Of a stretch of 64,000 bases of DNA, positions 24,297-47,579 are shown piece by piece. This stretch comes from Shinella daejeonensis (GTDB lineage: Bacteria; Pseudomonadota; Alphaproteobacteria; Rhizobiales; Rhizobiaceae): positions 1,240,001-1,304,000 of the forward strand of contig NZ_JAHWXY010000001.1 of NCBI RefSeq assembly GCF_024281235.1. The letters are read 5' to 3'. Each line of letters begins with the position of its first letter. Position 1 is the first letter of the stretch. The notes below the pieces were generated by a model. The model saw only the letters and a list, made by a program, of their open reading frames with translations, was not told where the DNA came from and searched no databases. The position numbers were made by a program, and so were the translations under genes.

Positions 24297-24306
24297 GAGC
24301 GTGTCC

Positions 24307-25338: not shown

Positions 25339-25347
25339 CGGGTCTCC

Positions 25348-26298: not shown

Positions 26299-26363
26299 AA
26301 GAATTCCTCCGGACTTGACGTTTCTATGAAAGTTGGAAGGCAGGGGTTGCTCCACCCCGACGC

Positions 26364-27095: not shown

Positions 27096-27113
27096 TTCGG
27101 ACCTCTTTATGAT

Positions 27114-27134
27114 GGGGCGCCCTGCGGGCGCCCC
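27114..27134 (-). promoter_or_regulatory. Hairpin between binding-protein and ATPase genes
   Basis: GGGGCGCCC (27114-27122) and GGGCGCCCC (27126-27134) make a perfect nine-base-pair stem with a three-base loop in the 52-base gap. It has no T run, so it is more likely a stability or attenuation element than a full terminator. Confidence 0.65.
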
Positions 27135-27147
27135 TCGACACTGTCGA

Positions 27148-27939: not shown

Positions 27940-28019
27940 GGTCTATCCTCTCAGTTAGGAGTTCCGGTTTGTTTGAACGGCCTTCTGCGTGCCGTTCGGT
28001 GATGGGATTCTCGCAGCGA

Positions 28020-28676: not shown

Positions 28677-28677
28677 C

Positions 28678-29364
28678 TCATACTCTCCCGAGCAGGCGGC
28701 GGCGGGACCGCGTGAAGATCATGAGGCCGGCCATGTTGAGCACGGCGCGGAAGATGAAATTCAAGAGGACATAGACCACCGCGATGATCAGATAGACTTC
28801 CATGGTGCGGAAGGTTTCGGAACTGGCGATCATCGCCGCGCCCGTGAGGTCCTCGACGCCGATGGCCGAGACGAGACTGGTCGACAGCATCAGGAGCACG
28901 CATTGCGAGACGACCGGCGTGAACACTTTCTCCAGCGCCGGCGGCAGGATGACGAAACGCAGCGTCTGGAAATAGGTGAGGCCGAGGCTTTCGGCCGCTT
29001 CCACCTGGCTGCGATGCGTCGCCTGGATGCCGCCGCGCACGATCTCCGCGACATAGCCGCCATTGTTGAGGACAAGGGCGATGAACACCGAGGTCAGCGG
29101 TGAAAGCCGGATGCCGATATTGGGCAGCCCGAAGAAGATCACGAAGATCTGCACCAGAAGCGGCGTGTTGCGCATCGTCTCGACATATATGCGCACGGCG
29201 AGCCGCGGCAGAACGAAGGACGACGTCGACACGGTGGCGCAGACGATACCGAGAGCGATACCCCCGAAAATACCGACGAAAGACAGGCCGAGCGTCAGCC
29301 ACAATCCGCTGACGAATTGCTGCAGGTAGTTCAGCAATGGGCCGAACTGGAATGTGTATTCCAT
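28678..29364 (-). CDS. Polar amino-acid-type ABC transporter permease
   Basis: 228-residue HisMQ-family permease. It contains RNTPLLVQIFVIFFGLPNIG and the ATPase-contact loop EAAESLGLTYFQTLRFVILPPALE. It is the second gene of the leftward operon after the HD-domain protein and forms a heteromeric channel with the next permease. Confidence 0.92.
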   Translation of the reverse strand: MEYTFQFGPLLNYLQQFVSGLWLTLGLSFVGIFGGIALGIVCATVSTSSFVLPRLAVRIYVETMRNTPLLVQIFVIFFGLPNIGIRLSPLTSVFIALVLNNGGYVAEIVRGGIQATHRSQVEAAESLGLTYFQTLRFVILPPALEKVFTPVVSQCVLLMLSTSLVSAIGVEDLTGAAMIASSETFRTMEVYLIIAVVYVLLNFIFRAVLNMAGLMIFTRSRRRLLGRV

Positions 29365-29406
29365 CTCTAACCTCGGCTCCTTCCTTCAGACTGCGGTTAC
29401 GGCTTC

Positions 29407-30039
29407 CTATTGCTGGCCAAGCGGGCGTACGCGCAAGTTCGGACCGGCAAACCCGATCGTATCCGGGTGGCAGAGATCGAGCGCTGCGGCAACATGCCAC
29501 CAGGCATGATCCGCCTGGCGGATGATGTAGCATTCCGTGCTGTGGCCGATATGCGCCCCTTCCAGCGAATGTCCCATGCAGATATGGCCGATCTCCTCCG
29601 GCAGGCCGACCGAAAGGCAGACATGGGTGCCATAGGCCGAATGGCGGAAGGACGGCTCGCCATAGCGATCGCCCCGCTCGCGCCAGCGCTTCAGATTGAC
29701 CGGATCGAACTCCCAGGTCTTGCCGATATCGTGGCAGAGGCCGCCGGCCAGAATGATGTCGCGATCGACCTTCGCATCCGGATTGGTTTTCTTGAATTCG
29801 TCGTGGATCGCAAGGGCAAGATGCGTGACGCCGCGCAGATGGGCGTCCTGCATGCCCTGCTTCAGCGCGAACACGCCGGGGCTGCCCTCGCCGGGAATAT
29901 CCGTGACACGGTCGAAAGAGGAGCGCTCCAGCGCGAACACCCAGGCGTCCACCACCTTTTCCCGCAATTCGTCGGACTGGATCTCGGCGATCTCCGGAAG
30001 GTCTTCGAGAATGTGTTCGCGCGAAATGGTCTTGTACAT
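29407..30039 (-). CDS. HD-domain phosphohydrolase-like protein
   Basis: 210-residue protein of the HD superfamily, with His73 in the first helix region, the HD pair His103-Asp104 in GGLCHDIGK, and later histidines in FRHSAYGTHV and GHICMGHSLEGAHIGHS that could complete a metal site. HD proteins hydrolyse phosphoesters or, in some catabolic cases, oxidise or cleave organophosphonates. It is the first gene of the operon, ahead of the transporter, which suggests a metabolic rather than signalling role. Substrate unknown. Confidence 0.75.
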   Translation of the reverse strand: MYKTISREHILEDLPEIAEIQSDELREKVVDAWVFALERSSFDRVTDIPGEGSPGVFALKQGMQDAHLRGVTHLALAIHDEFKKTNPDAKVDRDIILAGGLCHDIGKTWEFDPVNLKRWRERGDRYGEPSFRHSAYGTHVCLSVGLPEEIGHICMGHSLEGAHIGHSTECYIIRQADHAWWHVAAALDLCHPDTIGFAGPNLRVRPLGQQ

Positions 30040-30122
30040 GGGTCACCGCGTTCCTGAAAATTGATAGGCGGAACCTACGCGACCTTGATATCAAAATCTA
30101 ATCAGGATAATTGTCGCTATCG

Positions 30123-30137
30123 ATAGAAAAATTCTAT
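30123..30137. promoter_or_regulatory. LysR-type binding box (T-N11-A)
   Basis: ATAGAA (30123-30128) and TTCTAT (30132-30137) are exact inverted arms around AAA and include the T-N11-A pattern of LysR regulators. It lies six bases before the regulator start, in the 103-base divergent gap facing the HD-domain gene. Confidence 0.6.
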
Positions 30138-30142
30138 TCATC

Positions 30143-31042
30143 ATGGCCTTCAGCTTTTCCGCGCTCGAATCCTTCTATTGGGTGTCCCAGCTGCTCAGCT
30201 TCAATGCGGCAGCCGACCGGCTGCACGTCAGCCAGCCCACCGTTTCCTACCGGATCCGCGAGCTGGAGGAACAGCTCGGCGTGTCGCTGTTCGTGCGCCA
30301 GAAGCGCCAGCTCGTTCTGACGAGCGAAGGCGAGGCGCTCAAGCATTATGCGGAATCGATGATCGCCATCGCGCGGGACATCGAATCCAACATCAAGACC
30401 CGCAACACCCGCCTGCCGACGCTCCGGGTGGGCGTGATCGACAGTTTCGCCGACGTGTGCCTTCCGGCCCTTCTCGACGAACTCGACAATCGCTTTGCCG
30501 GCACGCGCATCGCAGCGATGGTGGACACCAGCCATAAGCTCGCCAGCCAGCTGTCGGAGGGATTGCTCGATATCGCGGTCCTGTCGACGCCCCCGCCCCA
30601 CGACAATGTCGCGCTGGAGCTTCTGGGACGCCAGAGCGTCGACTGGGTCGCCAGCCGCAAGCTCCGGCTTCCGTCGGGAACCATCTCCGACGCCGAGCTG
30701 CTCGGCCAGCGCATCTTCGCGACGCCGGCGCCCTCCAACCTGCATTCGCTGACGACCGGCTTCCTCGCCACCTCGACCGGCGCCGGTCTGCGCCTCAACG
30801 TCTGCAACAGCCTGGGCACGATCCTCAATCTGGTGCAGTCGGGCACCGGTATCGGCATCCTGCCGACGCGACTGGTGCAGGAACAGCTTCGACAGGGAAC
30901 AATACAGACCCTGAAGACCCGGATGGTCCTACCGTTGCAGGAAGTTTTCATCGGCACGAACAAGGGGGTGATCGTGCGCGCCCTGCCGCAGGTCGTCGAA
31001 ATGGTGCGCAAGGTCAGCGCGAGCGTCGCCTATTGCGATTAG
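30143..31042 (+). CDS. LysR-family transcriptional regulator
   Basis: 299 residues. The N-terminal helix-turn-helix reads FYWVSQLLSFNAAADRLHVSQPTVSYRIRELEEQLGVSLFVRQKRQL, followed by the LysR substrate-binding domain from about residue 90. It is divergent from the HD/ABC/idonate operon and probably controls it. The lack of a clear ribosome site before ATG 30143 is noteworthy. It is convergent with the next operon. Confidence 0.92.
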   Translation: MAFSFSALESFYWVSQLLSFNAAADRLHVSQPTVSYRIRELEEQLGVSLFVRQKRQLVLTSEGEALKHYAESMIAIARDIESNIKTRNTRLPTLRVGVIDSFADVCLPALLDELDNRFAGTRIAAMVDTSHKLASQLSEGLLDIAVLSTPPPHDNVALELLGRQSVDWVASRKLRLPSGTISDAELLGQRIFATPAPSNLHSLTTGFLATSTGAGLRLNVCNSLGTILNLVQSGTGIGILPTRLVQEQLRQGTIQTLKTRMVLPLQEVFIGTNKGVIVRALPQVVEMVRKVSASVAYCD

Positions 31043-31112
31043 GCGATATTGGCGATCCGTGCGATCTTCACGCCGCGCACAAGCGCGTGCGTGCCGTTCG
31101 ACATGGCGGCGT

Positions 31113-31916
31113 TCAGCCGTCCTCGGAGAGATGGCGCGACAGGAACCCGCGGAAGCGATCCGTCTTCGGGTTGGCCATGATGTCGGCCGGCGGCCCCGCC
31201 TCGACGACGACGCCGCCATCCATGAAGATGACACGATCGGCGACGCTGCGCGCAAAGCCCATTTCATGGGTGACGACGATCATCGTCATGCCCTCTTCGG
31301 CCAGTTCGCGCATGACCTTCAGCACTTCGCCGACAAGCTCGGGATCGAGCGCCGACGTCACCTCGTCGAAAAGCATGACCGAGGGTTCCATGGCAAGCGC
31401 CCGGGCGATGGCGACACGCTGCTGCTGCCCGCCGGACAAGCGCCCCGGATAGGCATCGGCCTTGTGGTCCATTCCGACCTTTCCGAGCAGCCGCATGGCG
31501 AGGTCGCGCGCCTTCGCGGCATTCATGCCCTTCACCTTGACCGGCCCCATCATCACGTTTTGAAGGACAGTGCGATGCGGAAAGAGATTGTAGCTCTGGA
31601 ACACCATGCCGACATGCTCGCGCAGGCGGGCATTTTCCAGCTCGCTGACCGGCTTGCGGACACCGCCCGTCGTCTTGTAGCCGACCGGACGCCCGTTGAC
31701 CGTGATCGCGCCCTGTTCGAAGGTTTCCAGGAAATTCACGCAGCGCAGCATCGTCGACTTGCCCGAACCGCTCGGGCCGAGAACGACGACGACCTCGCCG
31801 CGCTTGACGGAAATATCGATGCCCTTGAGGACTTCGATCGCACCGAAGGATTTGCGGAGACCGTTGATCGCGACAATTTCTTCACCGCGAGAGGCAAGGT
31901 CGGCAGCCGGGTTCAT
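31113..31916 (-). CDS. Polar amino-acid-type ABC transporter ATP-binding protein
   Basis: 267-residue GlnQ/HisP-class ATPase: [52 protein letters not shown] 31916 (MNPAADL) is chosen because the longer frame overlaps the permease gene. It is the last gene of the DUF4392 operon and powers the transporter encoded just upstream. Confidence 0.92.
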
Positions 31917-31926
31917 GAGGGGCTCC

Positions 31927-32574
31927 TTAATGATCGAAGGCCAGGCGCTTTTCCAGCGCGCGCGCCGCAAGCGAAAGCGGATAGCAGATGACGAAGTAGA
32001 TAATCATGACGCCGAGGAAGATCTGGAACGCCGCCAGCGTGCGCTCCACCACTTCACGGGCGGCGAAGGACAGTTCCCAGGCTCCGACGATGGAGGCATA
32101 GGAGGTCTGCTTGATCGCCATGAGCGAGATATTGAGCACCGGCGCAATCAGGAGCCGCATGGCCTGCGGCAGGATGATTTCCCGCATCATCATGCCCTTG
32201 CGCATTCCAAGGCTTTTGGCCGCCTCCAGCTGTCCGGCGGGAACGGCCGCGATCGCCCCGCGCGTCGCCTCCGCGACGAAAGCGGCGACATAGACGATCA
32301 TGGAAACGGCCACCGCCGTATAGGCGTCCAGCCTAAGGCCCATGGCGGGGAATGAGTAGAACCCCAGAAACATCACGACCAGCACGGGAATGCCGCGAAA
32401 CACGAAAATATAGGCGGTGACGGCCGCGCGCAGGGCTTTTCCGCCGACCGCCGCCAGAACGCCGACGCCGACGCCGAGAATCGTACCGAAAACGACCACG
32501 ATCGCCGACAGGACGATGGTGTAGACGGCGCCTTGCAGGAGATAGGGCAGGCTCGATTGAAGGACGGGAAACAT
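31927..32574 (-). CDS. Polar amino-acid-type ABC transporter permease
   Basis: 215-residue HisMQ-family permease with [17 protein letters not shown] and the coupling loop [24 protein letters not shown]. The start at ATG 32574 is set by GGAGG eight bases upstream and shares one base with the stop of the preceding permease (TGATG). It forms the channel with that permease. Confidence 0.9.
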
Positions 32575-33233
32575 CAGCCATACCTCCGGGCTGCGCGAAC
32601 CTCGACGACACGAAGGGCAAGGCCGAGCACGGTTGTGAGCACGAGATAGAACATCGCAACGGCGATGAACGCCTCGAAGGACGCGCCCGAACGCTCGATC
32701 GTCACCTTGCCGGTCAACGTCAGGTCCATCACGCCGATGGCCGAAACCAGCGATGTATCCTTGACGAGGACGATCAGCTGGTTGCCGAGCGCCGGCAGCA
32801 CCCTGATGAAGGCCTGCGGCAGGATGACGAGACGGATGACCGCGGACCGCCGCAGGCCGATCGCGCTGCCGGCTTCCCACTGCCGCTGACTGAGCGACTG
32901 GATGCCGGAACGCAGGATCTCCGAGAGGAAGGCCCCGTGCTGAAGCGCGATCGCAATCACGCCGCAGACGATGCTGCTCCAGAAGATACCAAGCAGCGGC
33001 AGGCCGAAATAAAGCAGATACATCTGCACCAGCAGCGGGGAGTTCCGCATGATCTCGACATAACCGTCAACCAGGCGCGTCAGCCATTTCCAGCGCGCAA
33101 GGCGGGGAATGATCAGGACCAGGGCCCAGATCATGGCGGTGGGGGCGGCAAGAGCCGCCACCCAGGTCGTTATGAGGAAACCATCGGCGAATGCCGGCAA
33201 ATATCTCGTGAAGAAAACAATGAAGGCTTCCAA
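32574..33233 (-). CDS. Polar amino-acid-type ABC transporter permease (TTG start)
   Basis: 219-residue HisMQ-family permease with RNSPLLVQMYLLYFGLPLLG and the loop EAGSAIGLRRSAVIRLVILPQAFIR. The first codon at 33233 is TTG, preceded by a purine-rich GGGGAA; there is no nearby ATG that keeps the first helix. It follows the binding-protein gene after 38 bases. Confidence 0.9.
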   Translation of the reverse strand: MEAFIVFFTRYLPAFADGFLITTWVAALAAPTAMIWALVLIIPRLARWKWLTRLVDGYVEIMRNSPLLVQMYLLYFGLPLLGIFWSSIVCGVIAIALQHGAFLSEILRSGIQSLSQRQWEAGSAIGLRRSAVIRLVILPQAFIRVLPALGNQLIVLVKDTSLVSAIGVMDLTLTGKVTIERSGASFEAFIAVAMFYLVLTTVLGLALRVVEVRAARRYG

Positions 33234-33271
33234 TGGAGTTCCCCTTCCCTAACGAACCCGCAGAGGGCTGG

Positions 33272-34120
33272 TCACTTCTGCGGCTGATTGAGATACCACT
33301 TGGTATTCAGCGGCTTAGTCCCGAACCACTTCTCGTAGATCCTGCTGTAGTCGGCAAAGAGATATCCGCCCGTCATCTCGTCGACGACCAGGTCGAGATA
33401 CCGCCACAGGCGGAAGTCGCCCGGCTTCATGAAGAGACCGGTATTGACGACATCCGTCAGACGTTCCTCGATCACCCGCATATCGGGGTTCTGCTTGACG
33501 TACCAGGCGGCGACCGGGCCATCCAGCTGCGCGCCGGTGGCGCGGCCGAGCTTCACGGCGTTGAACTGCGCCGCAATCCCGTCGAAGGTCGCGATCTGCG
33601 CCTCCGGGAACAGGCGCTTGGCGCGCTCCTCCTGGGTCGGGGTGGTCAGGTTGGCGATGGTGACATCGGCCTTGTTGAAGTCGGCGAGCGTCTGGAACGG
33701 AGAATCGTTGCGCACGACCATGACCACGCCGCCGTCGATATAGCTGCGCGTGAAGGCGACCTGCTGGGCGCGATCGGCATAGATGGTGGTCGTCTGCGCG
33801 CCGAAGTCGACCGTGCCGTTCTGTGCGTTGGGCCAGCGCTGGGCGGCGCTCTGGCGAACGAATTCGACCTTGGTCTCGTCGCCGAAGGTCGCCTTTGCAA
33901 CCAGCCTGGCGATATCGATGTCGAAGCCGACCAGCTCGCTGTTTTCATCGATGAAGCCGAACGGCGGCGATTCGCTCGAAACTCCGACGATCAGCTTGCC
34001 GCGCGACAGGATTTCATCGAGACGCGAGGCTTCCTGGGCATGTCCAGCTCCGGCTGCGCCGACTGCGAAAAGTGCGGCGGCAACGAGGGCGCGCCCCCTG
34101 GAAAGAAGTATGCTCTTCAT
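33272..34120 (-). CDS. Polar amino-acid-type ABC substrate-binding protein
   Basis: 282-residue periplasmic receptor (SBP_bac_3). The signal peptide runs to about residue 28 (LVAAALFAVGAAGAGHA). The mature part has LDEILSRGKLIVGVSSESPPFGFIDENSELVGFDIDIARLVA, and an Arg in FVRQSAAQRW at the usual carboxylate-binding area is possible. It feeds the two permeases downstream. The ligand is unknown but the operon suggests an amino-acid-like acid. Confidence 0.9.
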   Translation of the reverse strand: MKSILLSRGRALVAAALFAVGAAGAGHAQEASRLDEILSRGKLIVGVSSESPPFGFIDENSELVGFDIDIARLVAKATFGDETKVEFVRQSAAQRWPNAQNGTVDFGAQTTTIYADRAQQVAFTRSYIDGGVVMVVRNDSPFQTLADFNKADVTIANLTTPTQEERAKRLFPEAQIATFDGIAAQFNAVKLGRATGAQLDGPVAAWYVKQNPDMRVIEERLTDVVNTGLFMKPGDFRLWRYLDLVVDEMTGGYLFADYSRIYEKWFGTKPLNTKWYLNQPQK

Positions 34121-34155
34121 TTTTCATTCCCCTTTTGGTGGATGTGGACCGCGCG

Positions 34156-35166
34156 TCAGCGCAGCGTTGGCCTGACGATGCCCTCGATGATCTCGGACAC
34201 CGCAAGATGCGTGGATAACGGGATGCCATCGACATTCGCGTCGATCACGCCGTCGACGGAATTGATCAGGCCGATCTCGACGCCCCGCTTCAAAAGCCTC
34301 TCTTCCATCTCCGGCGCATGGACCAGCCGGGCATCCTTGAGACGGGCAGCAAGCGCTGCGACGATCGCATAGCAGCCCCAGTTCGAAACCGCCGCCGTGA
34401 CGAGGACGTCGGCTCCCGTCGTGGCGCCGATACCGGCGCCGCCCTCCGGCCGGGCGTCGCCGAAACGGACATGGGATCGCACGGCTTGCGCCACCGCCCC
34501 CATGCCGATCTCATTGCCCCCGTCGCCGACCGCCACCGTGGGCAGGCCGCGCCTGATGGCTTCGTCGAACACATGGTCGATACGCGCCCGCTCCATGCCA
34601 TAATCGACGCCGCGCATGCTGCAATAAATGCCGTCGGCATTGCGCCCGACGCGCTCGGTCGAAAAAAGCAGGCTCGGCTTCAGTTCGTCCAGGATACGGG
34701 CGGCTTCGGCCGCCGCATCCTGATCCTTCGTGGTGAACGGCAGCATGGACACCACCGCGAGACTTTTGTCACGCGCGGCGGTCTTTCCGTCTGCGACCGG
34801 CACGACCGTGACGCCGGCCGCCGTCAGGAGCTTGCCGATCGGCTCGATCAGCGTCGCTTCCGCAAGGACGACGCAAAGCGCCCGGCGCGACAGGCTGATC
34901 GCACGAACGACGGCAGCCAGTCCGGCAGGACCGTCGTTCTCGCCGATCTCCGGCGAAATCCAGGCCCGGGAGACCGAACCCGTCGTCACCAGCACGACAT
35001 CCTCGTGCTTCAGCGCCATGAGCCGGTCGGCGGCAGCCCCCACCGGCGACGCGCCGAGCAACTGCCGGGAAGCGGCGTAAAGATGTTCGACGCCGCGACC
35101 GCCGAGATCCAGATTGACAAGCCGGTCGAGACGCTCGTCGATGGCCGAAAAGCCCGAAGCGGTCAT
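34156..35166 (-). CDS. DUF4392 protein (D-glutamate-cyclase-like), copy 1
   Basis: 336-residue protein of the DUF4392 family (PF14336), the family of the C-terminal domain of mammalian D-glutamate cyclase, which turns D-glutamate into 5-oxo-D-proline. Conserved points are GENDGPAG (75-82), ERVGRN (171-176), GDGGNEIGMG (214-223) and SNWG (261-264). Its ATG overlaps the stop of the PLP-enzyme gene as ATGA. The family motif set is intact, so an enzyme is likely, but cyclase activity is untested for bacterial copies of this type. Confidence 0.85.
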   Translation of the reverse strand: MTASGFSAIDERLDRLVNLDLGGRGVEHLYAASRQLLGASPVGAAADRLMALKHEDVVLVTTGSVSRAWISPEIGENDGPAGLAAVVRAISLSRRALCVVLAEATLIEPIGKLLTAAGVTVVPVADGKTAARDKSLAVVSMLPFTTKDQDAAAEAARILDELKPSLLFSTERVGRNADGIYCSMRGVDYGMERARIDHVFDEAIRRGLPTVAVGDGGNEIGMGAVAQAVRSHVRFGDARPEGGAGIGATTGADVLVTAAVSNWGCYAIVAALAARLKDARLVHAPEMEERLLKRGVEIGLINSVDGVIDANVDGIPLSTHLAVSEIIEGIVRPTLR

Positions 35167-36455
35167 GCGAAATCTCCCAGGATCAGCGTCCTCATGGCCT
35201 TTTCATCGGTGATGACGGCGGCAACCTTGCGAAGGCAGTCGTCCACGGCGTCCACGACGGCGCTCACGCCACCGACGCTCGCAAGGGCGTCGAGCGTCGG
35301 CTTCAGGCGCAGCGAGACCCGTGCACCCGGCTGGCCATGCGTATTGACGGTCAGGATGCCGTGTTCCGCCAGCAGCAGCATGCCGAGCGCCGCGGTCGCC
35401 TCGCAAGGCACGATCGTGATCCTGTCCGCCGTGACGGACGCACGTTCGAGAATGGCGGCAAGCACCGCGTTCTCGTCGACCATCGGCCCGAGATCGCTGC
35501 GAACGACGAGGCCCGCTCCCATTTTCTCCTCGAGGGCGGCGGCAAGCTCCTGTCCGGCGGCGGCCTCCTGCACCAGATGATGGGGATCGAACTTCTGAAG
35601 CGAGCGAAGCGCGCCGGCTGCGATGGGAGCGCGGGCTTCCATGCCGTATTCCGCCGCCTTGGCCGCTGCGGCCATGACGAAAGCCGGACGGCCGACCAGC
35701 ACGCCGGCGCGCGGCCCCGAAAGCCCGGCCTTGTCGCAATTGGTGATCGCCAGGTCCGCGCCCAGCGCGAGAGCCTTCCGCCCGCCATGCAGAACCGGAC
35801 GAAGACGGGCGCCATAGGCTTCGTCGAGAAGGACGATCGCGCCGGCCTTGTGCGCCGCCTCGACCACGGCGACGGCAAGCATGTCGTCAAGCCGCGCCAG
35901 AGCGCTGGTGACCGTCGTGACGATCACCAGACCGCAGTCCCCGATGTGTCTGCGCCAGTCGCCGTCGGAGGCCACTTCCCTCAGTTCGGTTCTGGCAAGC
36001 GCGCATCCCCGGACCACCGATGCATGCGACCGGTCACTGGCCGGCACGACGGAAAGGACCGGTTTCTGCGCGGCCAGAGCGGCGATCGCCGCCACGATCC
36101 CGGCGCTCGTTCTGTTGAACACGGCGCAGCCGTCGTCATTGCGGCCGCCAAGATGCTCGATGGCGACCTTGCGCAGTTCCTCGGCGTAAAGACCGGGGCC
36201 GACCCACTCCTCGCAATTCGTCGCGATATCGTCCGGCCGCACCGGAAAGTCCCGCTGGTTGCCGGTGAAGACCCCGATCGAGCGCGGCCCGAGCTGGCGG
36301 ACGCGTGTTGCGGCGACGGCCTGCCCGTGGCGCAGCCGCCGGGCCTCCTCGATGCTGGACCGGATGATCGCGCCGCGGGCGAAGCCGACGACGGGATCGA
36401 TCGCGTTGCCGAAGGCATCCCGTGAGATTTCGGTTTCCGGCATGGATATGTTCAT
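35163..36455 (-). CDS. SelA-like PLP-dependent fold-type-I enzyme
   Basis: 430-residue enzyme resembling the SelA-like/MJ0158 group of PLP proteins. SHAS (143-146), Asp211 in LLDEAYGAR for the pyridine nitrogen, and Lys242 in NCDKAGLSGPRAGVLVG for the Schiff base are all in place. Relatives include selenocysteine synthase and ammonia-lyase-type enzymes acting on amino sugars or amino acids. No selenocysteine genes are nearby, so SelA function is unlikely; a lyase, racemase or transaminase step on the imported amino acid is more plausible. Both ends overlap DUF4392 genes by four bases (ATGA). Confidence 0.78.
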   Translation of the reverse strand: MNISMPETEISRDAFGNAIDPVVGFARGAIIRSSIEEARRLRHGQAVAATRVRQLGPRSIGVFTGNQRDFPVRPDDIATNCEEWVGPGLYAEELRKVAIEHLGGRNDDGCAVFNRTSAGIVAAIAALAAQKPVLSVVPASDRSHASVVRGCALARTELREVASDGDWRRHIGDCGLVIVTTVTSALARLDDMLAVAVVEAAHKAGAIVLLDEAYGARLRPVLHGGRKALALGADLAITNCDKAGLSGPRAGVLVGRPAFVMAAAAKAAEYGMEARAPIAAGALRSLQKFDPHHLVQEAAAGQELAAALEEKMGAGLVVRSDLGPMVDENAVLAAILERASVTADRITIVPCEATAALGMLLLAEHGILTVNTHGQPGARVSLRLKPTLDALASVGGVSAVVDAVDDCLRKVAAVITDEKAMRTLILGDFA

Positions 36456-37582
36456 TGGTGACAGCCTCCCGTGGCCTGCGCATCGTCGAGCATCGTGAAA
36501 ATCGGCAGTTCGCCCTCGCCGGATACGGTGACGGCCTCGCCGATCCCGGATCTGGAGTTGGCGGCGATCGCGATGCTGCGCATCAGTTCCGCGACACCCG
36601 CATGCCCGCGCCAGTCGATACCGTCGACGGCAAGGGCCGGACGCGCGGTCGCCCCGTCGAGGGCGCCGGCGGCGATACAGGCGACGATGAAGGCATGCTC
36701 CCGATCTCCGCTATGGGCCAGTCTTTCGTCGTCAAGCGCGATGGCGAGCGCGCCGCAGATCGCATAGGCCCCCCAATTGGAGACGGACGCACTGACGAGA
36801 ACATCCGTTTCGGTCACCGTGACAATGCCCGTTTCATCCGGCTGCGAGCGGCCGCCGCGCGGCAGGAGGCCGGCAACGGCGTCCCGGATCTTGCCGAAAC
36901 CGATTTCGTTTCCACCGTCCCCGACGCCGATCGTCAGGATATTGCGCTTCCTTGCCTCGTCCGCCAGACGATAGATGTCTGCGACGGTGCCCGGCGGGCG
37001 GCGATCGCCGCGAACGCCATGATAATGTCCTGCCTCGTTCGGACCGTCGCGCTCGATGAAGATCACCGCCGAGGGGTTTTTCCGGCTGAGGATATCGATG
37101 GCCGCCGCCCGGCCTTCCTCGCCGCCCTTCGGAAAGACGGTCGTCGAAATGGAACCCTGCGCCTTTGAATCCGGTGACTGGGCGACATCCTCGACGACGC
37201 GAACGCAGGCCTCGACGGCGGGCATATGCTCTTCCTGCGCGACGAGCGACACTTTCGCTTCGAAACCGAGCGCCAGACTGCGGGCCAGCGCCACCGCGCC
37301 GGGCGGGCCGTCGGTCTCTCCGAACGGCAGCTTCGGCAGAACGCCCGCCCCGGTCGCGATAATCACGTCGGAGCCGGGGCGGATGGCGGCCAGCAGTTTT
37401 CGCGCCGCCAGTGTCGAGGACGGTTCGCCCTGGGCTTCACGGCAGGCCAGATAGGTCGGCACGACGATGCCGGCGGGAAGGCCGCCCGCAAGCGGACGAA
37501 CCTCCAGCGTCATCAGTCTGTCGAAACGCTCGCCGAAGATGCGCAGGCGATCGATATCGACGGTCGTCAACTCATTCTTCAT
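36452..37582 (-). CDS. DUF4392 protein (D-glutamate-cyclase-like), copy 2
   Basis: 376-residue paralogue of the protein at 34156-35166. It shows the same landmarks: GETDGPPGA, IERDGPNEAG, GVGDGGNEIGFG and SNWGAYA, but has a longer N-terminal segment and an extra C-terminal tail. The two copies are clearly diverged, so they may form a heteromer or act on two stereoisomers. I chose ATG 37582 because AGGA lies eight bases upstream; ATG 37606 has only a poor site. The stop overlaps the PLP-enzyme start. Confidence 0.85.
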   Translation of the reverse strand: MKNELTTVDIDRLRIFGERFDRLMTLEVRPLAGGLPAGIVVPTYLACREAQGEPSSTLAARKLLAAIRPGSDVIIATGAGVLPKLPFGETDGPPGAVALARSLALGFEAKVSLVAQEEHMPAVEACVRVVEDVAQSPDSKAQGSISTTVFPKGGEEGRAAAIDILSRKNPSAVIFIERDGPNEAGHYHGVRGDRRPPGTVADIYRLADEARKRNILTIGVGDGGNEIGFGKIRDAVAGLLPRGGRSQPDETGIVTVTETDVLVSASVSNWGAYAICGALAIALDDERLAHSGDREHAFIVACIAAGALDGATARPALAVDGIDWRGHAGVAELMRSIAIAANSRSGIGEAVTVSGEGELPIFTMLDDAQATGGCHQ

Positions 37583-37623
37583 GGAAAGCGTCCTGGACAT
37601 CGCCATGGTTCCCGACCGTCGCT

Positions 37624-39129
37624 TCAGAGGTTGACCGTGACGCTCTTACGCGCCGTATAAGCTTCCAGAGCGCCTTCGATGGAATATTCCGAGCCGATGC
37701 CGCTCTGCTTGATACCACCGTAGGACATGCCGGGAATCTGTCCCCCGGCGCGGTTGATCTGGAGCCAGCCGGCATCGATGCGGCCGGCCGCATTGAGCGC
37801 CGTGGTCACATCGTGGCTGAAGATATAGGCTGCAAGACCATAGTGGGTGTCATTGGCCCAGGCGATGACCTCCTCCTCGTCCGTCCACGGAATGGCGACG
37901 AGGACCGGGCCGAAGACTTCTTCCCGCACGATCCGCCAGTCGTTGGCGAGGCCCTTGAGAATGGTCGGCTTCGGGAAGAAGCCGGCGTTCTCGCCCGCCG
38001 CCGGCGGAACCTCGCCGATCACCACTTCGGCCCCCGCGTCGACCGCCTCGCGAAGGAACGCCTGAACGGCGCTGTAGCGCTCCTCGTTGATGATCGCACC
38101 GATATCGGTTTCCTCATCGAGCGCGTCGCCGATCTTCATCCCGGCGAGCCTGGCGGTGACGCTCTTCAGGACCGGCTCGAACACGTCCTTATGGATATAA
38201 AGGCGGGACCCGGCGGTGCAGGACTGCCCCTGACGGGCAAAACGCATCGCCGCGATAATATTGGCCGCAAGGCCCTCGATCCGCCCGTCGGTCGCCGCGT
38301 CCGGATAGACGATGACCGGGCTCTTGCCGCCAAGCTCCAGCGTGGCGCGGGCGATACGGTCGGCGGCGGCATGCGCCACCAGCTTGCCGACCTCGACCGA
38401 GCCGGTGAACGAGATTTTCGCAACGTCCGGATGGGCCGAAAGGGCGGCACCGGCGACTTCGCCGACACCGGTCACGAGATTGAAGACCCCCTTCGGAAAG
38501 AGGTCGGCCGCAAGTTCGGCAATCCGGATCACGGCAAGCGGCGCATCTTCGGCCGGCTTGAGGACCAGCGTATTGCCGGTGCCGAGCGCCATGCCGATCT
38601 TGACGGCGGCAAGCACCAGCGGCGAGTTCCACGGGATGATCGCGGCAACGACGCCGAGCGGTTCGCGCGTCGTATAGCTGAACAGCCCCGGGCCGAGCGG
38701 AAGCGTCTCGCCCTTCTGTTCGGCAACCGTTCCGCCATAGTAGCGAAGCACTTCGATGGCGCTCATCACCTCGGGGCGGCTCTGCGTGCGCAAGGCGTTT
38801 CCGGTTTCGGCGGCAAGGACGCGGGCAATCTCCTCGCAATGGGCGGCGATGCGATCGGCAAGCTGCGTCAACAGCGCGCCGCGCGAACGGGACGCCATGC
38901 GCCGCCAGGAGGGAAACGCCGCCCTGGCGGCGGCGACGGCCGCATCGACGTCCTGCTTTCCGGCGGCTCCGATCGTCGTGATCGTGCTGCGCCGGCAGGG
39001 ATTGATGACGTCAAGCGTGGCGCCGGCGGCAGGCTCCACCCAGGCCCCGTCGATAAGCTGGCCGGAGAGGCCTTTGGTCGGGAGCGTGATTTCCGCCGTG
39101 TCGTTTGCGGCTTTTGCGGTCTGGGACAT
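37624..39129 (-). CDS. NAD(P)-dependent aldehyde dehydrogenase
   Basis: 501-residue aldehyde dehydrogenase with Asn168 (IPWNSP), Glu265 (LELGGKSP) and catalytic Cys304 (GQSCTAG). It lies between the beta-hydroxyacid dehydrogenase and the DUF4392 genes. The pairing suggests sequential oxidation of a hydroxyacid to a semialdehyde and then to an acid, perhaps the last steps after the PLP/DUF4392 reactions. Confidence 0.9.
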   Translation of the reverse strand: MSQTAKAANDTAEITLPTKGLSGQLIDGAWVEPAAGATLDVINPCRRSTITTIGAAGKQDVDAAVAAARAAFPSWRRMASRSRGALLTQLADRIAAHCEEIARVLAAETGNALRTQSRPEVMSAIEVLRYYGGTVAEQKGETLPLGPGLFSYTTREPLGVVAAIIPWNSPLVLAAVKIGMALGTGNTLVLKPAEDAPLAVIRIAELAADLFPKGVFNLVTGVGEVAGAALSAHPDVAKISFTGSVEVGKLVAHAAADRIARATLELGGKSPVIVYPDAATDGRIEGLAANIIAAMRFARQGQSCTAGSRLYIHKDVFEPVLKSVTARLAGMKIGDALDEETDIGAIINEERYSAVQAFLREAVDAGAEVVIGEVPPAAGENAGFFPKPTILKGLANDWRIVREEVFGPVLVAIPWTDEEEVIAWANDTHYGLAAYIFSHDVTTALNAAGRIDAGWLQINRAGGQIPGMSYGGIKQSGIGSEYSIEGALEAYTARKSVTVNL

Positions 39130-39156
39130 GGTCTATCCTGCTTGAAATACGTGTGA

Positions 39157-40050
39157 TCAGGCGCTCGCGGGAAGGCGCAATTCCACCTTCAGGAGGTTTT
39201 CGAAGACTTCCGAAACGCTGGTGGAATCCTTGGCGCCGAGGCCCTCGGCGCGCGCCATGTTGTAGATCTGGCGGACCATCTGGCCGAGCGGCATGGGATA
39301 GGCCGAAAACTCCTCCAGGCAGAGCGAGATGTCCTTGTGCATCAGATCGAGGGCGAAATTTGCCGGCCGCTCTTCCGTGAAGAGGGTCTTGGGGAGATAG
39401 TCGAGCATCTTGCTGCCGGCGAGACCGCCCGACAGGACGTCCGTCAGGATGGAGAGGTTCGCGCCGGACTTGACGCTTGCCGCCAGCACTTCACCAAGCG
39501 CGACCGTATTGATCGCCGTGAGAAGATTGTGGGCAAGCTTGGTAAGCTGGCCGGTGCCGACCGGGCCGCAATGAACGATACGGCCGGCGATCGGCCCGAG
39601 GACCGGCCTTGCGGCTTCGAGAACCTCCGGACGGGCGCCGGCCATCACCAGAAGCGTGCCGGCTCCAGCGCCCGCGACGCCGCCGCTGACCGGCGCATCC
39701 ATGAAGTGAACGCCCCGGGCCTCGCAGAGGCTGGCGACAGCCCGCGTCGTCGATGCATCGACCGTGCTGAAATCGATGACCGTGGCGCCCGCGGCGACCG
39801 TCCGCAGGATACCGTTCTCGCCGGTAATCGCTTCCCGCAGCGAGGCCGGGCTCGGAAGGCTGCTGAGAACGAACATCGCCGGGGCAGCCGCCGCGCCCGC
39901 CGAAGCTTCCACGATGGCGCCCTTTTCGGAAAGAGCCGCCGTGGCTGCCGTGTCAGGATCGAAAACATGGACGACATGACCCGCATCGAGAAGGCGAAGC
40001 GCCATTCTCGACCCCATGCGACCGACACCAATGAATGCAACCGTCGTCAT
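39157..40050 (-). CDS. Beta-hydroxyacid dehydrogenase (HIBADH family)
   Basis: 297-residue NAD(P)-dependent enzyme: FIGVGRMGSRMA (6-17), substrate motif DAPVSGGVAGA (118-128) and catalytic Lys171 in GQLTKLAHN. It is the first gene of the nine-gene operon and faces the LysR gene. Substrates of the family include 3-hydroxyisobutyrate, glycerate/tartronate semialdehyde and beta-hydroxyglutarate-like acids; none can be chosen from sequence. Confidence 0.9.
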   Translation of the reverse strand: MTTVAFIGVGRMGSRMALRLLDAGHVVHVFDPDTAATAALSEKGAIVEASAGAAAAPAMFVLSSLPSPASLREAITGENGILRTVAAGATVIDFSTVDASTTRAVASLCEARGVHFMDAPVSGGVAGAGAGTLLVMAGARPEVLEAARPVLGPIAGRIVHCGPVGTGQLTKLAHNLLTAINTVALGEVLAASVKSGANLSILTDVLSGGLAGSKMLDYLPKTLFTEERPANFALDLMHKDISLCLEEFSAYPMPLGQMVRQIYNMARAEGLGAKDSTSVSEVFENLLKVELRLPASA

Positions 40051-40224
40051 CCTGCACCTTTCCTGTGCTGCGCCAAAAGGTCTTCTTCAAGGAGGCAAGA
40101 ACGAAGAACGGCGATGACGCGGCACAGGCTTCCAAGCCTGTCGTTCTCCAAGTTCGCTCCCCCCTTTTTTCCATTGAGCGCAGAAAACGGGTGAAAGAAA
40201 AGACGACGCTTGATAACAGTGCAT

Positions 40225-40239
40225 GTAAGAAAAAATTAC
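40225..40239. promoter_or_regulatory. LysR-type binding box (T-N11-A)
   Basis: GTAA (40225-40228) and TTAC (40236-40239) flank an A-rich centre and fit T-N11-A (T40226, A40238). It lies 13 bases before the LysR start, inside the 200-base gap shared with the divergent operon. Confidence 0.5.
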
Positions 40240-40251
40240 GGGTTAACGCTC

Positions 40252-41169
40252 ATGCTCAATCTGTCGCGATTGCAACTCCTTCACGAGCTTTCCGTGCTCG
40301 GCACGATATCGGCCGTCGCACGATCGCTGGAACTGACGAGACCGGCCGTGTCCCAGCAGCTCTCCCTGCTCGAAAAGGAAGTCGGCTTCGTCCTGTTCGA
40401 GCGTTCGGGGCGGGGCGTGCGCTGGACATCGGCGGGCGAGCGCCTGCTTGCCGGTATCGGCGGCATCCTCCAGGCGGTCAACGAGGTGGAGGCGGACCTT
40501 GCGCGCACCGCCCAGACGGTCTCCGGCGAATTGCGGATCGCCGCCTTCGGCTCTGCCGCCGCGACCATCATTCCGCAGGCGATGACGCGGCTTGCAAAAC
40601 AGCATCCCCAGCTGGAGATCTTTTTCAACGAGATGGAGCCGGGCGACGGCCTCAAGGCGACCGCCGCGAAACAGGTCGACATCGCGATCGTCGACGATCT
40701 CACCGGCACGGAAAACGTCGCGCTCCAGCTCGATTTCGAGCCGCTTTACATCGACCCGTTCAAGGCCGTGGTATCGGCCGATCACCGCCTGGCGAGCACC
40801 GGGCGGCGGTCGGTGGAGCTATGGGAGCTTGCACAGGAAACATGGGCGCTCAACCAATCGGCCGTGGGCTATCAGACGTTCATCGTCCATGCCTGCCACG
40901 CGGAGGGCTATTCGCCGAAGATCATGTCGAGCTGCCGCAACATCGCAGCCACGCTGGAGTTCGTGCGGACGGGAAGCTACGTCACGGTTCTTCCGGGCCT
41001 TGCCACGCACAACATACAGGTCGATCCCGATTTCCGCTGTCTGGACCTGCGTCCCCTCACCCAGCGGCGATTGTTCACGGCCTTTGCAAAAGGCAGCAAG
41101 GCCCGCCCGGTGATCGGCTCGGCGCTGGAGGCGTTTCAGCAGGCCTGCTCGCTGTTCGTAAACCGTTGA
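40252..41169 (+). CDS. LysR-family transcriptional regulator
   Basis: 305-residue regulator. Helix-turn-helix: LLHELSVLGTISAVARSLELTRPAVSQQLSLLEKEVGFVLFERSGRGV; the rest is the periplasmic-binding-like effector domain. ATG 40252 (MLNLSRLQ) is chosen over an upstream frame start at 40210 because the family starts here. It is divergent from the DUF4392 operon, which it probably controls with an operon-specific inducer. Confidence 0.92.
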   Translation: MLNLSRLQLLHELSVLGTISAVARSLELTRPAVSQQLSLLEKEVGFVLFERSGRGVRWTSAGERLLAGIGGILQAVNEVEADLARTAQTVSGELRIAAFGSAAATIIPQAMTRLAKQHPQLEIFFNEMEPGDGLKATAAKQVDIAIVDDLTGTENVALQLDFEPLYIDPFKAVVSADHRLASTGRRSVELWELAQETWALNQSAVGYQTFIVHACHAEGYSPKIMSSCRNIAATLEFVRTGSYVTVLPGLATHNIQVDPDFRCLDLRPLTQRRLFTAFAKGSKARPVIGSALEAFQQACSLFVNR

Positions 41170-41202
41170 CGATCGCTTTTCCGGCGCAAACGGAAACCGC
41201 CG

Positions 41203-42210
41203 TCACCCCACGATCGCCGCCAGCACGCTGACGCAGTCGCCGGGCTTGACGAGGCCTGGGAAATGACGGGCGGCAAGGACGCCATCCATCTTCGCCGTCA
41301 CCTCCAGCGGCGCGACGCCGGTGCGCCCGACGGGATAGATACGGGCGACCACATCGCCGTTTTCCACCGTATCGCCGAGATCGTAGAGCGGTTCGATCAG
41401 GCCGCCGTCTTCGGCAAAGGAGAAGCAGTCGCCGTCCGGCATGTCGAGCCAGGTCGTTTCCGTAGAGACGACGGCACCCTTCAGGATGCCCGCCGCCTTC
41501 AGCATGTTCGCAACACCGGTCCGGGCGATACCGGCGGTCTTCGCCGTCGCCGTGCCGCCGCCGCCAAGCTCGGTGGTGATGAAGACCTTGCCCATCTCCT
41601 CGGCCGCCGTGTCGTACATGCCGACCGCGTCGATCTCCAGCATCTTCATCGACCAGGGAGCCCCGAAAGCGCCGACGAGTTCGAAGGCTCTGGCCTCCAG
41701 CACCTTGTCGGGCAGGATATGGGCGGCGCAGAAGGGCAGGAAATCGAGCGTCTTGCCGCCCGAATGGAAATCGAGAACGACATCGGCAAGCGGCAGCAGC
41801 ACGCGCTGGAAATAGTCGGCGATCTTCTGCGTGACCGTTCCGTCCGGCGCGCCGGGAAAGCTGCGGTTCATGTTGCCCCGGTCGATCGGCGAGGTGCGCG
41901 TGCCGGCAAGGAACGCCGGATAGTTCATCGCCGGCACAATGATGATGCGGCCCGAGACATCCTCCGCCTTCACTGTACGGGCGAGATCGAAGAGCGCGAT
42001 CGGCCCTTCGTATTCGTCGCCGTGATTGCCGCCGGTGAGAAGGGCCGTCGGCCCCTCGCCGTTTTTCACGACCGTCACGGGGATCGTCACCGATCCCCAG
42101 GCGGAATCGTCCCGGCTATAGGGCAGGCGCAGGAAACCGTGCTGCACGCCTGCGGCCGAAAAATCGACCGTGGAGCTGATCGGCGAGGGACGCAGGGGAC
42201 GATCCAGCAT
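41203..42210 (-). CDS. doeB: N-alpha-acetyl-L-2,4-diaminobutyrate deacetylase DoeB (EutE)
   Basis: 335-residue zinc enzyme of the succinylglutamate desuccinylase/aspartoacylase family. Zinc ligands are His63 and Glu66 (GGNHGDEYEG) and His149 (DFHSGG), and RGNMNRSFPG (111-120) is the substrate loop. In ectoine degradation it removes the acetyl group from N-alpha-acetyl-diaminobutyrate to give diaminobutyrate. It is the last gene of the leftward ehu-eut operon, three bases after doeA. Confidence 0.95.
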   Translation of the reverse strand: MLDRPLRPSPISSTVDFSAAGVQHGFLRLPYSRDDSAWGSVTIPVTVVKNGEGPTALLTGGNHGDEYEGPIALFDLARTVKAEDVSGRIIIVPAMNYPAFLAGTRTSPIDRGNMNRSFPGAPDGTVTQKIADYFQRVLLPLADVVLDFHSGGKTLDFLPFCAAHILPDKVLEARAFELVGAFGAPWSMKMLEIDAVGMYDTAAEEMGKVFITTELGGGGTATAKTAGIARTGVANMLKAAGILKGAVVSTETTWLDMPDGDCFSFAEDGGLIEPLYDLGDTVENGDVVARIYPVGRTGVAPLEVTAKMDGVLAARHFPGLVKPGDCVSVLAAIVG

Positions 42211-42213
42211 GGC

Positions 42214-43395
42214 TCAATCCTTCACGAGCAGCTTGCGCGGCACATCGGCCAGGCATTCGACCCCGGTTTCGGTGATCAGGATGCTTTCCGTCGTCTCGAA
42301 GCCCATGTCTTCCAGCCACAAGCCGGTCATGAAATGGAAGGTCATGCCCGGCTTCAGTTCCGTCCTGTCGCCGGGCCGCAGGCTCATCGTGCGCTCGCCC
42401 CAGTCCGGCGGATAGGAGACGCCGATCGGATAGCCGGTGCGATTGTCCTTCACGATGCCGTATTTCTTCAGCACGCGGAAAAAGGCATTGGCGATATCCT
42501 CGCAGGTATTGCCGGGTTTGGCGACCGCAAGCCCCGCCTCCATGCCTTCGAGCGTCGCCTTTTCCGCATCGATGAAGGCCTGCGTCGGCTTGCCGAGGAA
42601 GACGGTGCGCGACAGCGGCACATGATAGCGATGGTAGCAGCCGGCGATCTCGAAGAACGTGCCCTCGCCGGATTTCATCGGCCGGTCGTCCCACGTCAGA
42701 TGCGGCGCGGAGGCTTCGACACCCGACGGCAGCAGCGGCACGATCGCCGGATAATCGCCGCCGATGCCTTCGACGCCGCGCGTGCCGGCATCGTAGATCT
42801 CGGCGACAAGATCGCATTTGCGCATGCCCACTTCGATCTTGTCGAAGATCCGCTGATGCATCGCCTCCACGATGCGCGCGGCGTTGCGCATATATTTGAT
42901 CTCCGTCTCGCTCTTCACCGCACGCTGCCAGTTGACGAGCGCGGTGGCGTCGACGAAGCGGGCATTCGGCAGATGCTTCGTCAGCGAGGCGAAGGCGGCG
43001 GCCGAAAACCAGTAATTGTCCATCTCGACGCCGATCGTCAGCGTGTCGAGACCACGCTCGGAAATCCTGGCCGACAGATAGTCCATCGGATGACGTTCGG
43101 TGGACTGTACGTAATGGTCCGGATAGCCGATGATATTGTCATGCTTCAGATAGGCGGTGAATTTCGCGCCATTGGCGTCCTGGCCGCGGCCGTACCAGAT
43201 CGGCTCGCCCGTCGGCGGCACGACAACGCATTGATGCACATAAAACGACCAGCCGTCATAGCCGGTCAGCCAGTTCATGTTCGACGGATCGCTTACGATC
43301 AGCACGTCGATCCCCCTGGCCTCCATGGCGCGCCTCGTCTTTTCGAGACGCGCCGCATATTCCGCGAGAGAGAACTTCAGGTTCGCTTGTTTCAT
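42214..43395 (-). CDS. doeA: Ectoine hydrolase DoeA (EutD)
   Basis: 393-residue enzyme of the M24 peptidase/creatinase fold that opens the ectoine ring to N-alpha-acetyl-diaminobutyrate. Diagnostic stretches include DPSNMNWLTGYDGWSFYVHQ, YGRGQDANGAKFTAY and FEIAGCYHRYHVPLSRT. ATG 43395 (MKQANLKFS) is chosen; the longer frame continues only into poorly conserved arginine-rich residues. It lies beside doeB and downstream of eutABC. Confidence 0.95.
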   Translation of the reverse strand: MKQANLKFSLAEYAARLEKTRRAMEARGIDVLIVSDPSNMNWLTGYDGWSFYVHQCVVVPPTGEPIWYGRGQDANGAKFTAYLKHDNIIGYPDHYVQSTERHPMDYLSARISERGLDTLTIGVEMDNYWFSAAAFASLTKHLPNARFVDATALVNWQRAVKSETEIKYMRNAARIVEAMHQRIFDKIEVGMRKCDLVAEIYDAGTRGVEGIGGDYPAIVPLLPSGVEASAPHLTWDDRPMKSGEGTFFEIAGCYHRYHVPLSRTVFLGKPTQAFIDAEKATLEGMEAGLAVAKPGNTCEDIANAFFRVLKKYGIVKDNRTGYPIGVSYPPDWGERTMSLRPGDRTELKPGMTFHFMTGLWLEDMGFETTESILITETGVECLADVPRKLLVKD

Positions 43396-43439
43396 CGGTC
43401 TTTCCTCATTTCCACCTGCCTGCCGGCATCGGTCTGGTC

Positions 43440-45436: not shown

Positions 45437-45439
45437 GAC

Positions 45440-46878: not shown

Positions 46879-46880
46879 CG

Positions 46881-47540: not shown

Positions 47541-47579
47541 CGTCTTTCCGTTTCGTTTCTGAAGAAAACAGGCCCTTTA

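What the first reader, a model, noticed from the sequence alone, without database searches (positions are those of the whole stretch)
31113..40239. DUF4392-PLP-DUF4392 catabolic operon: two D-glutamate-cyclase-like paralogues flank a SelA-like enzyme
Three genes joined by ATGA overlaps encode diverged DUF4392 proteins on both sides of a PLP enzyme with an intact Schiff-base lysine (Lys242). They sit in a nine-gene operon with an amino-acid-type ABC transporter, an aldehyde dehydrogenase and a beta-hydroxyacid dehydrogenase, facing a LysR gene. The known family activity (D-glutamate to 5-oxo-D-proline in mammals) suggests a route for a D-amino acid, lactam or similar compound. I know of no described pathway with this gene set. 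The two cyclase-like copies may form a heteromer or serve two stereoisomers.
Basis: partly seen in the sequence, partly recalled or inferred. Interest (0 to 1): 0.75.

Follow-up and report, generated by a model that had tools for sequence, protein, structure and literature searches.

The report
Mobile amino-acid catabolic cassette, substrate unknown
A ten-gene block that looks built to import and break down an unidentified amino acid, pairing two metal-site proteins of poorly known function with a vitamin-B6 enzyme, recurs on plasmids of soybean-nodulating and other bacteria and gives a concrete system for finding out what these proteins do.

Summary
Window 31113-40050 (minus strand) holds nine tightly packed genes: HIBADH-type dehydrogenase, aldehyde dehydrogenase, DUF4392-A, MJ0158/SelA-like PLP enzyme, DUF4392-B and an amino-acid-type ABC transporter, facing a LysR gene. 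The unit recurs whole in Sinorhizobium (83% PLP identity) and, with transporters moved or replaced, in Bradyrhizobium, Paraburkholderia and Caballeronia (65-67%). Of 18 plasmid records with the PLP gene, 18 have DUF4392-B beside it and 15 have DUF4392-A. None of 150 searched relatives has the PLP gene, and homology to sister genomes stops at both edges, so it behaves as a mobile cassette; six of its genes show purifying selection.

Both DUF4392 proteins keep all six metal-binding acids of TON_0340, so both are probably active. They are probably not a local duplication: B is the PLP gene's constant partner, while A groups with DUF4392 proteins encoded beside TTT/TRAP transporters. A Rhodobacteraceae version lacks A and puts a class-III aminotransferase where the dehydrogenase sits, so both versions may make a semialdehyde for the ALDH. 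The binding protein keeps the alpha-amino-acid clamp residues.

I conclude it is an uncharacterised amino-acid catabolic cassette. The substrate, and cyclase activity of either DUF4392 protein, are unproven.

The parts
31113..31916 (-). ABC transporter ATPase, polar amino-acid type (start inferred at about 31916; the ORF tool lists 31970)
   Evidence: PF00005 3.1e-32; the three best NCBIfam matches TcyN, EhuA and GlnQ are below their cut-offs; orthologue 84-88% in Sinorhizobium
31927..32574 (-). ABC permease 2 (start inferred at 32574)
   Evidence: PF00528 9.1e-22; 87-88% Sinorhizobium orthologue aligned from residue 1
32574..33233 (-). ABC permease 1
   Evidence: PF00528 1.1e-18; below the ehuC/ehuD cut-offs
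33272..34120 (-). Family-3 solute-binding protein keeping Arg117 and Asp200, the alpha-amino-acid clamp residues of this family (role recalled)
   Evidence: PF00497 1.3e-27; alignments; 79% to the Bradyrhizobium orthologue
34156..35166 (-). DUF4392-B (GLUCM-like_C), constant partner of the PLP gene; six metal-site acids E76 D78 E171 D215 E219 D313
   Evidence: PF14336 203.8 bits; beside the PLP gene in 18 of 18 plasmid records by coordinates; acids invariant in 23 sequences
35163..36455 (-). Fold-type-I PLP enzyme, MJ0158/SelA-like; His144, Asp211, Lys242 conserved
   Evidence: TIGR03576 191.7 bits, below the 304.45 cut-off; MJ0158 structure 2aeu E 8.6e-37 and Foldseek rank 1
36452..37606 (-). 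DUF4392-A (GLUCM-like_C), about 15 residues longer than B at the N-terminus and about 33 at the C-terminus; six metal-site acids kept
   Evidence: PF14336 209.2 bits; alignments; TON_0340 is the top fold match; separate clade from B
37624..39129 (-). Aldehyde dehydrogenase; by score not the CoA-acylating methylmalonate-semialdehyde type
   Evidence: PF00171 5.6e-150; MMSDH 246.1 bits against a cut-off of 448.5
39157..40050 (-). Beta-hydroxyacid dehydrogenase of the HIBADH/tartronate-semialdehyde-reductase superfamily
   Evidence: PF03446 and PF14833; nearest solved structure by sequence is 2-hydroxymethylglutarate dehydrogenase 3cky
40210..41169 (+). Divergent LysR-type regulator
   Evidence: PF03466 and PF00126; divergent orthologue 53-89% in Sinorhizobium, Bradyrhizobium, Paraburkholderia and Caballeronia
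31029..41200 (.). Cassette limits: homology to sister genomes stops at 31028 on the left (one sister) and 41201-41219 on the right (five sisters)
   Evidence: PLP gene absent from 150 relatives searched

Best explanation
It is a horizontally spread catabolic cassette for one imported alpha-amino acid, probably non-proteinogenic. The family-3 binding protein and ABC transporter bring the amino acid in (inferred from conserved clamp residues). The PLP enzyme and its constant partner DUF4392-B carry out the distinctive core step: the PLP enzyme works at the alpha-carbon through Lys242 (racemisation, aldol-type cleavage or elimination), and DUF4392-B handles the product at its Mn/Mg site (condensation to, or hydrolysis of, a cyclic amide is most likely). 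HIBADH in rhizobia, or a class-III aminotransferase in the Rhodobacteraceae version, makes a semialdehyde that the ALDH oxidises to a carboxylate. DUF4392-A is a second, separately recruited enzyme of the same family that adds a step needed only in the rhizobial and Burkholderia version. LysR probably senses the substrate or an intermediate. Shown: gene order, conservation, residues, cassette limits. Inferred: every catalytic step and the substrate class.
For: Core order conserved across Alpha- and Betaproteobacteria. B accompanies the PLP gene in 18 of 18 plasmid records and A in 15 of 18. Six metal acids invariant in 23 DUF4392 sequences. A and B are not one clade: p-AU 0.0086. In L017 a class-III aminotransferase takes the place of HIBADH beside the ALDH, PLP and B genes. 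dN 0.05-0.11 against dS 0.6-1.3 for six genes. Cassette edges. Binding-protein clamp residues. In 5 of 11 other DUF4392 neighbourhoods opened there are arylmalonate-decarboxylase/racemase-family, PxpA, hydantoinase-type or RidA genes nearby, and remoter PLP homologues lie near hydantoinase A/B and RidA genes.
Against: No biochemical or expression evidence. Remoter PLP homologues (L033, L038-L040 at 40-41%, L034 at about 34%) have no DUF4392 homologue in the 16-20 kb fetched, so the PLP enzyme can work without it. Five of 11 other DUF4392 neighbourhoods opened show no lactam, racemase or RidA partner, and in a sixth a hydantoinase-type gene lies only at the far end of the stretch. ABC systems differ between hosts, so substrates may differ. 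The semialdehyde logic rests on family-level function and on one opened Rhodobacteraceae locus. The clamp's role is recalled. The AU-test group was named after the tree was seen, and some rows have long branches.
Confidence: 0.55

Rival explanations
1. D-glutamate / 5-oxoproline route: one or both DUF4392 proteins cyclise D-glutamate (or a close analogue) to 5-oxo-D-proline, and the PLP enzyme is a racemase. The lactam is opened by 5-oxoprolinase or hydantoinase-type enzymes encoded elsewhere.
For: A mammalian protein with a DUF4392 domain is reported as a D-glutamate cyclase. A putative hydro-lyase, PxpA and DUF4392 are adjacent in Pseudoalteromonas. The genome has one PxpA and six hydantoinase-B matches elsewhere. 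The Sci Rep discussion notes that soybeans contain D-glutamate.
Against: D-glutamate breakdown needs no HIBADH or ALDH (established knowledge). No DUF1445 domain in these proteins. No oxoprolinase gene among the cassette's genes. Two diverged copies are not explained.
Confidence: 0.17
2. Manganese phosphatase reading: the DUF4392 proteins dephosphorylate a phosphorylated intermediate, as reported weakly for TON_0340.
For: TON_0340 hydrolyses AMP with Mn, and the two active-site mutants tested had lost the activity. The same six acids are kept here.
Against: The authors call the activity very low but detectable, and the physiological substrate is unknown. No kinase gene is among the genes conserved in the annotated regions opened.
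Confidence: 0.1
3. Biosynthesis or recycling: the cassette makes a non-proteinogenic amino acid or signal and the ABC system re-imports it.
For: PLP enzymes, ALDH and dehydrogenases also occur in biosynthesis; at least one Sinorhizobium copy lies on a plasmid close to the nodulation effector gene nopM.
Against: Import-type ABC with a binding protein, LysR, HIBADH plus ALDH, and an MFS transporter gene inside the Paraburkholderia and Caballeronia versions look catabolic. No exporter or ligase gene among the cassette's genes.
Confidence: 0.1

Closest known systems
TON_0340 (Thermococcus), stand-alone DUF4392; PDB 4dwz, 5gl2
   Same: Domain, fold and all six metal-binding acids
   Different: Its physiological substrate is unknown; DUF4392-A here is longer at both ends than DUF4392-B
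Mammalian D-glutamate cyclase (9030617O03Rik / C14orf159)
   Same: Shares the DUF4392 domain
   Different: Also has a DUF1445 domain, absent here; the catalytic domain was not assigned in the parts read
MJ0158 PLP protein (PDB 2aeu, TIGR03576)
   Same: Closest solved structure by sequence and by fold
   Different: This protein is below the family cut-off; no paper naming MJ0158 was found in the held library
[quoted passage not shown]
   Same: PLP enzyme doing beta-elimination on a 2-amino acid with a lysine and an active-site histidine (passages); relation to the SelA-like group is recalled
   Different: Not among the 50 fold matches listed; no phosphosugar genes among the cassette's genes
Ectoine/hydroxyectoine utilisation operon (eut/ehu), next door at 41203-48705
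   Same: Same general plan: family-3 ABC transporter plus PLP and hydrolytic enzymes
   Different: None of the eut enzymes is in the cassette; its transporter proteins fall below the ehuA-D cut-offs

Membership tests
DUF4392 / GLUCM-like_C (PF14336) | Domain score above the curated cut-off | tested here: met
   203.8 and 209.2 bits against 27.9
DUF4392 / GLUCM-like_C (PF14336) | Six metal-binding acids of TON_0340 | tested here: met
   Invariant in both copies and in the 23 aligned sequences; TON_0340 positions
D-glutamate cyclase (mammalian type) | DUF1445 domain in the same protein | tested here: not met
   Pfam finds only GLUCM-like_C in both proteins
D-glutamate cyclase (mammalian type) | D-Glu to 5-oxo-D-Pro activity | not testable with these tools
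   Needs an enzyme assay
MJ0158 family TIGR03576 | Curated cut-off 304.45 bits | tested here: not met
   191.7 bits
MJ0158 family TIGR03576 | Homology and Schiff-base lysine | tested here: met
   2aeu E 8.6e-37 with Lys242 aligned to a lysine; Lys242 invariant in 13 sequences
Bacterial selenocysteine synthase SelA | SelA family hit | tested here: not met
   No SelA family in the Pfam or NCBIfam lists at E 0.001; the 'selenocysteine synthase' label in plasmid records is not supported
Ectoine transporter EhuABCD | EhuA/B/C/D equivalog cut-offs | tested here: not met
   All four below cut-off, whereas the neighbouring operon's EhuC and EhuB pass
Alpha-amino-acid-binding SBP family 3 | Arg and Asp of the alpha-amino-acid clamp | tested here: met
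   Arg117 and Asp200 by alignment; that these residues form the clamp is recalled

The most novel reading that the evidence does not exclude
The PLP enzyme and DUF4392-B (with A in the rhizobial version) form a multi-enzyme unit that makes or opens a lactam without ATP on a non-proteinogenic amino acid. That would be a new catabolic pathway and a first assigned role for bacterial DUF4392 proteins, carried as a competitiveness cassette on soybean-symbiont plasmids.
Probability: 0.15. Interest if true: 0.72.

Novelty: new variant of a known kind. Interest (0 to 1): 0.46.

Why it matters
DUF4392 proteins occur from archaea to humans, yet their chemistry as stand-alone proteins is open, and I found no paper on MJ0158-like PLP enzymes in the held library. 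This cassette ties the two together in a conserved, mobile unit with its own transporter and a facing regulator, so ligand binding and mutant growth could reveal the substrate and, from it, the DUF4392 reaction. 12 of the 18 plasmid records name Glycine (soybean or wild soybean) as host or source, which suggests a plant compound worth identifying.

Tried and rejected
Local duplication of DUF4392: argued against by the tree (B clade 100/100; A clade 100/98, joined with TTT/TRAP-linked proteins at 96/92). The AU-test group was named after seeing the tree, and several outer rows have long branches.

Recent transfer from Sinorhizobium: not supported. Synonymous divergence is 0.93-1.33 in 11 of 12 comparisons (0.64 in the other), and cassette GC is 64.6% against 57.8% and 60.1% in the two Sinorhizobium copies measured. 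No tRNA gene in the window. Comparing the two edges (800 bases each) gave no shared direct or inverted exact repeat beyond 11 bases, no more than shuffled sequence gives; one search had looked only within each edge.

Being part of the ectoine operon: rejected on gene content and cut-offs, and no ectoine genes are annotated beside the copies in the seven annotated regions opened.

Literature: DUF4392 is named in 2 papers; no paper holds 'TIGR03576', 'UPF0425', 'MJ0158' or 'glutamate cyclase domain-containing'; other searches gave listings in which I saw nothing on this gene set. PMC6865838 (passages): no occurrence of 'D-glutamate', 'aldehyde dehydrogenase' or 'amino acid ABC' in its main text. 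Only the held open-access library was searched.

Substrate guesses considered and not adopted: 4-substituted glutamates, beta-substituted alanines, canavanine, D-glutamate, 5-aminolevulinate. All rest on recall; none is tested.

Fold models: DUF4392-A (mean pLDDT 63.7) matches TON_0340 first. PLP (mean pLDDT 71.5) matches MJ0158 first, then generic fold-type-I enzymes, which does not fix the reaction.
Full report
What is there. Window 31113-40050 on the minus strand encodes, in transcription order, a HIBADH-type dehydrogenase, an aldehyde dehydrogenase, DUF4392-A, an MJ0158/SelA-like PLP enzyme, DUF4392-B, a family-3 binding protein, two permeases and an ATPase. A LysR gene faces them at 40210-41169. 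The three central genes overlap by four bases at each join, and the other gaps are 38 nt or less. The two DUF4392 genes are the only matches to PF14336 in this 4.66-Mb genome. Operon transcription is inferred from spacing.

Are the enzymes intact? Both DUF4392 proteins score above 200 bits against a cut-off of 27.9 and match TON_0340 sequences in the PDB at E 2e-24 or better. The TON_0340 paper (abstract and the Results section read) reports six acids, Glu59, Asp61, Glu115, Asp157, Glu161 and Asp246, at its metal site. The matching columns (E76, D78, E171, D215, E219, D313 of DUF4392-B) are invariant in the 23 sequences aligned, both window copies included. The PLP enzyme keeps Lys242, Asp211 and His144 in the 13 sequences aligned, the window's included. 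Its SHAS...DEA...K pattern reminds me of alpha-oxoamine synthases and threonine aldolases (recalled). The fold search ranks MJ0158 first; those groups, aminotransferases, SHMT and tyrosine phenol-lyase follow, on a model of mean pLDDT 71.5. Nonsynonymous divergence from two Sinorhizobium copies is 0.05-0.11 against synonymous 0.64-1.33 for the six genes measured, which means purifying selection.

Conservation elsewhere. A genome-collection scan with the PLP protein gave two loci, Sinorhizobium glycinis and S. fredii, each with the whole ten-gene unit. In the plasmid collection 18 records hold the PLP gene: Bradyrhizobium 8, Sinorhizobium 6, and one each of Caballeronia, Paraburkholderia, Rhodobacteraceae bacterium M382 and Alisedimentitalea; 12 of the 18 name Glycine as host or source. 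Judged by coordinates, all 18 have a DUF4392-B orthologue (55-88%) beside it, and 15 have a DUF4392-A orthologue (49-81%) on the other side. The three without A are the two Rhodobacterales records and B. japonicum USDA 135, where an IS element sits just upstream of the PLP gene. I opened 8 of the 18 regions; 7 of those carried annotation.

Variation that informs function. In the two Bradyrhizobium regions opened that have a full core (L013, L014) the orthologous ABC system lies divergently beyond LysR and a second ABC system lies downstream. In Paraburkholderia and Caballeronia an MFS transporter gene lies between ALDH and DUF4392-A, and a class-V PLP gene lies beyond LysR with an unlike ABC system. 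In Rhodobacteraceae M382 the order is LysR, class-III aminotransferase, ALDH, PLP, DUF4392-B, class-V PLP, and no HIBADH homologue was found in the stretch; the second Rhodobacterales record was not opened. A dehydrogenase and an aminotransferase thus occupy the same place before the ALDH, which suggests two ways to one kind of semialdehyde. Remoter PLP homologues occur in 4 of 7 genomes of one alphaproteobacterial genus (40-41% identity), near class-V PLP, ALDH, RidA and hydantoinase A/B genes and with no DUF4392 homologue in the 16-20 kb fetched. Another (about 34%, L034) has none of these partners by the same search.

The two copies are different things. In a tree of 23 sequences the B proteins form one clade (100/100) and the A proteins another (100/98). 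A joins five DUF4392 proteins encoded next to TTT or TRAP transporters (96/92). Holding A and B together lowers the likelihood (p-AU 0.0086). The group was named after the tree was seen, and several outer rows have long branches, so this is good but not final evidence.

Mobility. None of 150 relatives has the PLP gene. In 397 genomes of the order (own included) the other five matches are short and weak, covering 72-143 residues. In the phylum sample it is 1 of 398 and in the class sample 3 of 385, the own genome counted each time. These searches score a limited number of candidates per genome, and the samples overlap, so absence is not absolute; the Sinorhizobium genomes show that members of the family do carry it. 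In five sister loci around the ectoine gene eutE (of 12 same-genus matches, the own genome left out), homology stops at window 41201-41219. In one sister, homology over 26358-31028 stops at 31028; the only match of that stretch inside the cassette is a 68% match to the ATPase gene, which I take for a paralogue. The stretch 31029-41200 is therefore best read as a cassette in this genome. It is not a clean empty-site comparison, because the two flanks lie on different contigs in the one sister that has both. The cassette's GC (64.6%) is close to its surroundings (62.6% left, 64.5% right). No tRNA gene was found in the window and no shared repeat between the edges beyond chance.

Uptake. The binding protein aligns through most of its length with amino-acid-binding and related proteins (best AncCDT-1, E 6.5e-36). 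It keeps Arg117 and Asp200, the pair that in this family holds the alpha-carboxylate and alpha-amino groups (recalled). It is 79% identical to the Bradyrhizobium orthologue while the PLP enzyme is 66%, so its ligand is probably the same in both.

What DUF4392 does. The mammalian protein reported as D-glutamate cyclase has DUF4392 together with DUF1445; the parts I read (passages, Discussion) do not say which domain acts. TON_0340 alone shows a low Mn-dependent phosphatase activity, and its authors leave the physiological substrate open. I opened 11 other DUF4392 regions, of 51 further records plus others. Five have a suggestive partner: arylmalonate decarboxylase, dehydratase plus RidA, a putative hydro-lyase and PxpA, hydantoinase/oxoprolinase genes some 6 kb away and a Rid gene about 3 kb away, and a racemase-family gene. 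Five have none (three of these carry TTT or TRAP transporters), and in one a hydantoinase-type gene lies at the far end. A role in cyclic-amide or D-amino-acid metabolism is plausible, but nothing points to one fixed D-glutamate reaction.

Judgement. The best reading is a mobile catabolic cassette for one alpha-amino acid. I found no described pathway with this gene set in the searches, which cover only open-access papers.

Noticed in passing
window 41203-48705: Ectoine/hydroxyectoine utilisation genes (eutE, eutD, eutC, eutB, eutA, ehuC, ehuB; all over their NCBIfam cut-offs) lie directly beside the cassette.
   Followed up: partly
window 24307-31042: A second amino-acid-type ABC operon with a D-2-hydroxyacid dehydrogenase, a zinc alcohol dehydrogenase, an HD-domain gene and a facing LysR. 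Part of it (26358-31028) is found at 86% DNA identity in one sister genome.
   Followed up: partly
window about 12000-26000: GC falls to 57.9% and 59.2% in the 10-kb windows starting at 12 and 16 kb, against 63.6% for the whole window; possibly another island.
   Followed up: no
eutE matches in five relatives (L051, L053, L056, L058, L059): 5 of 15 eutE matches (own genome included) are reported with one TGA inside; not explained.
   Followed up: no
L015: In the 25-kb stretch of B. japonicum USDA 135, orthologues of HIBADH, ALDH and DUF4392-A are missing and an IS element lies just upstream of the PLP gene.
   Followed up: partly
L022 7983-10120: Roseinatronobacter sp. S2 has two DUF4392 genes in tandem beside a TTT transporter, another two-copy arrangement with no PLP gene annotated nearby.
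   Followed up: partly
L029 6671-14076: UbiD decarboxylase, DUF4392, Asp/Glu racemase-family gene, HisC-like transaminase, ABC transporter and UbiX in one run.
   Followed up: no
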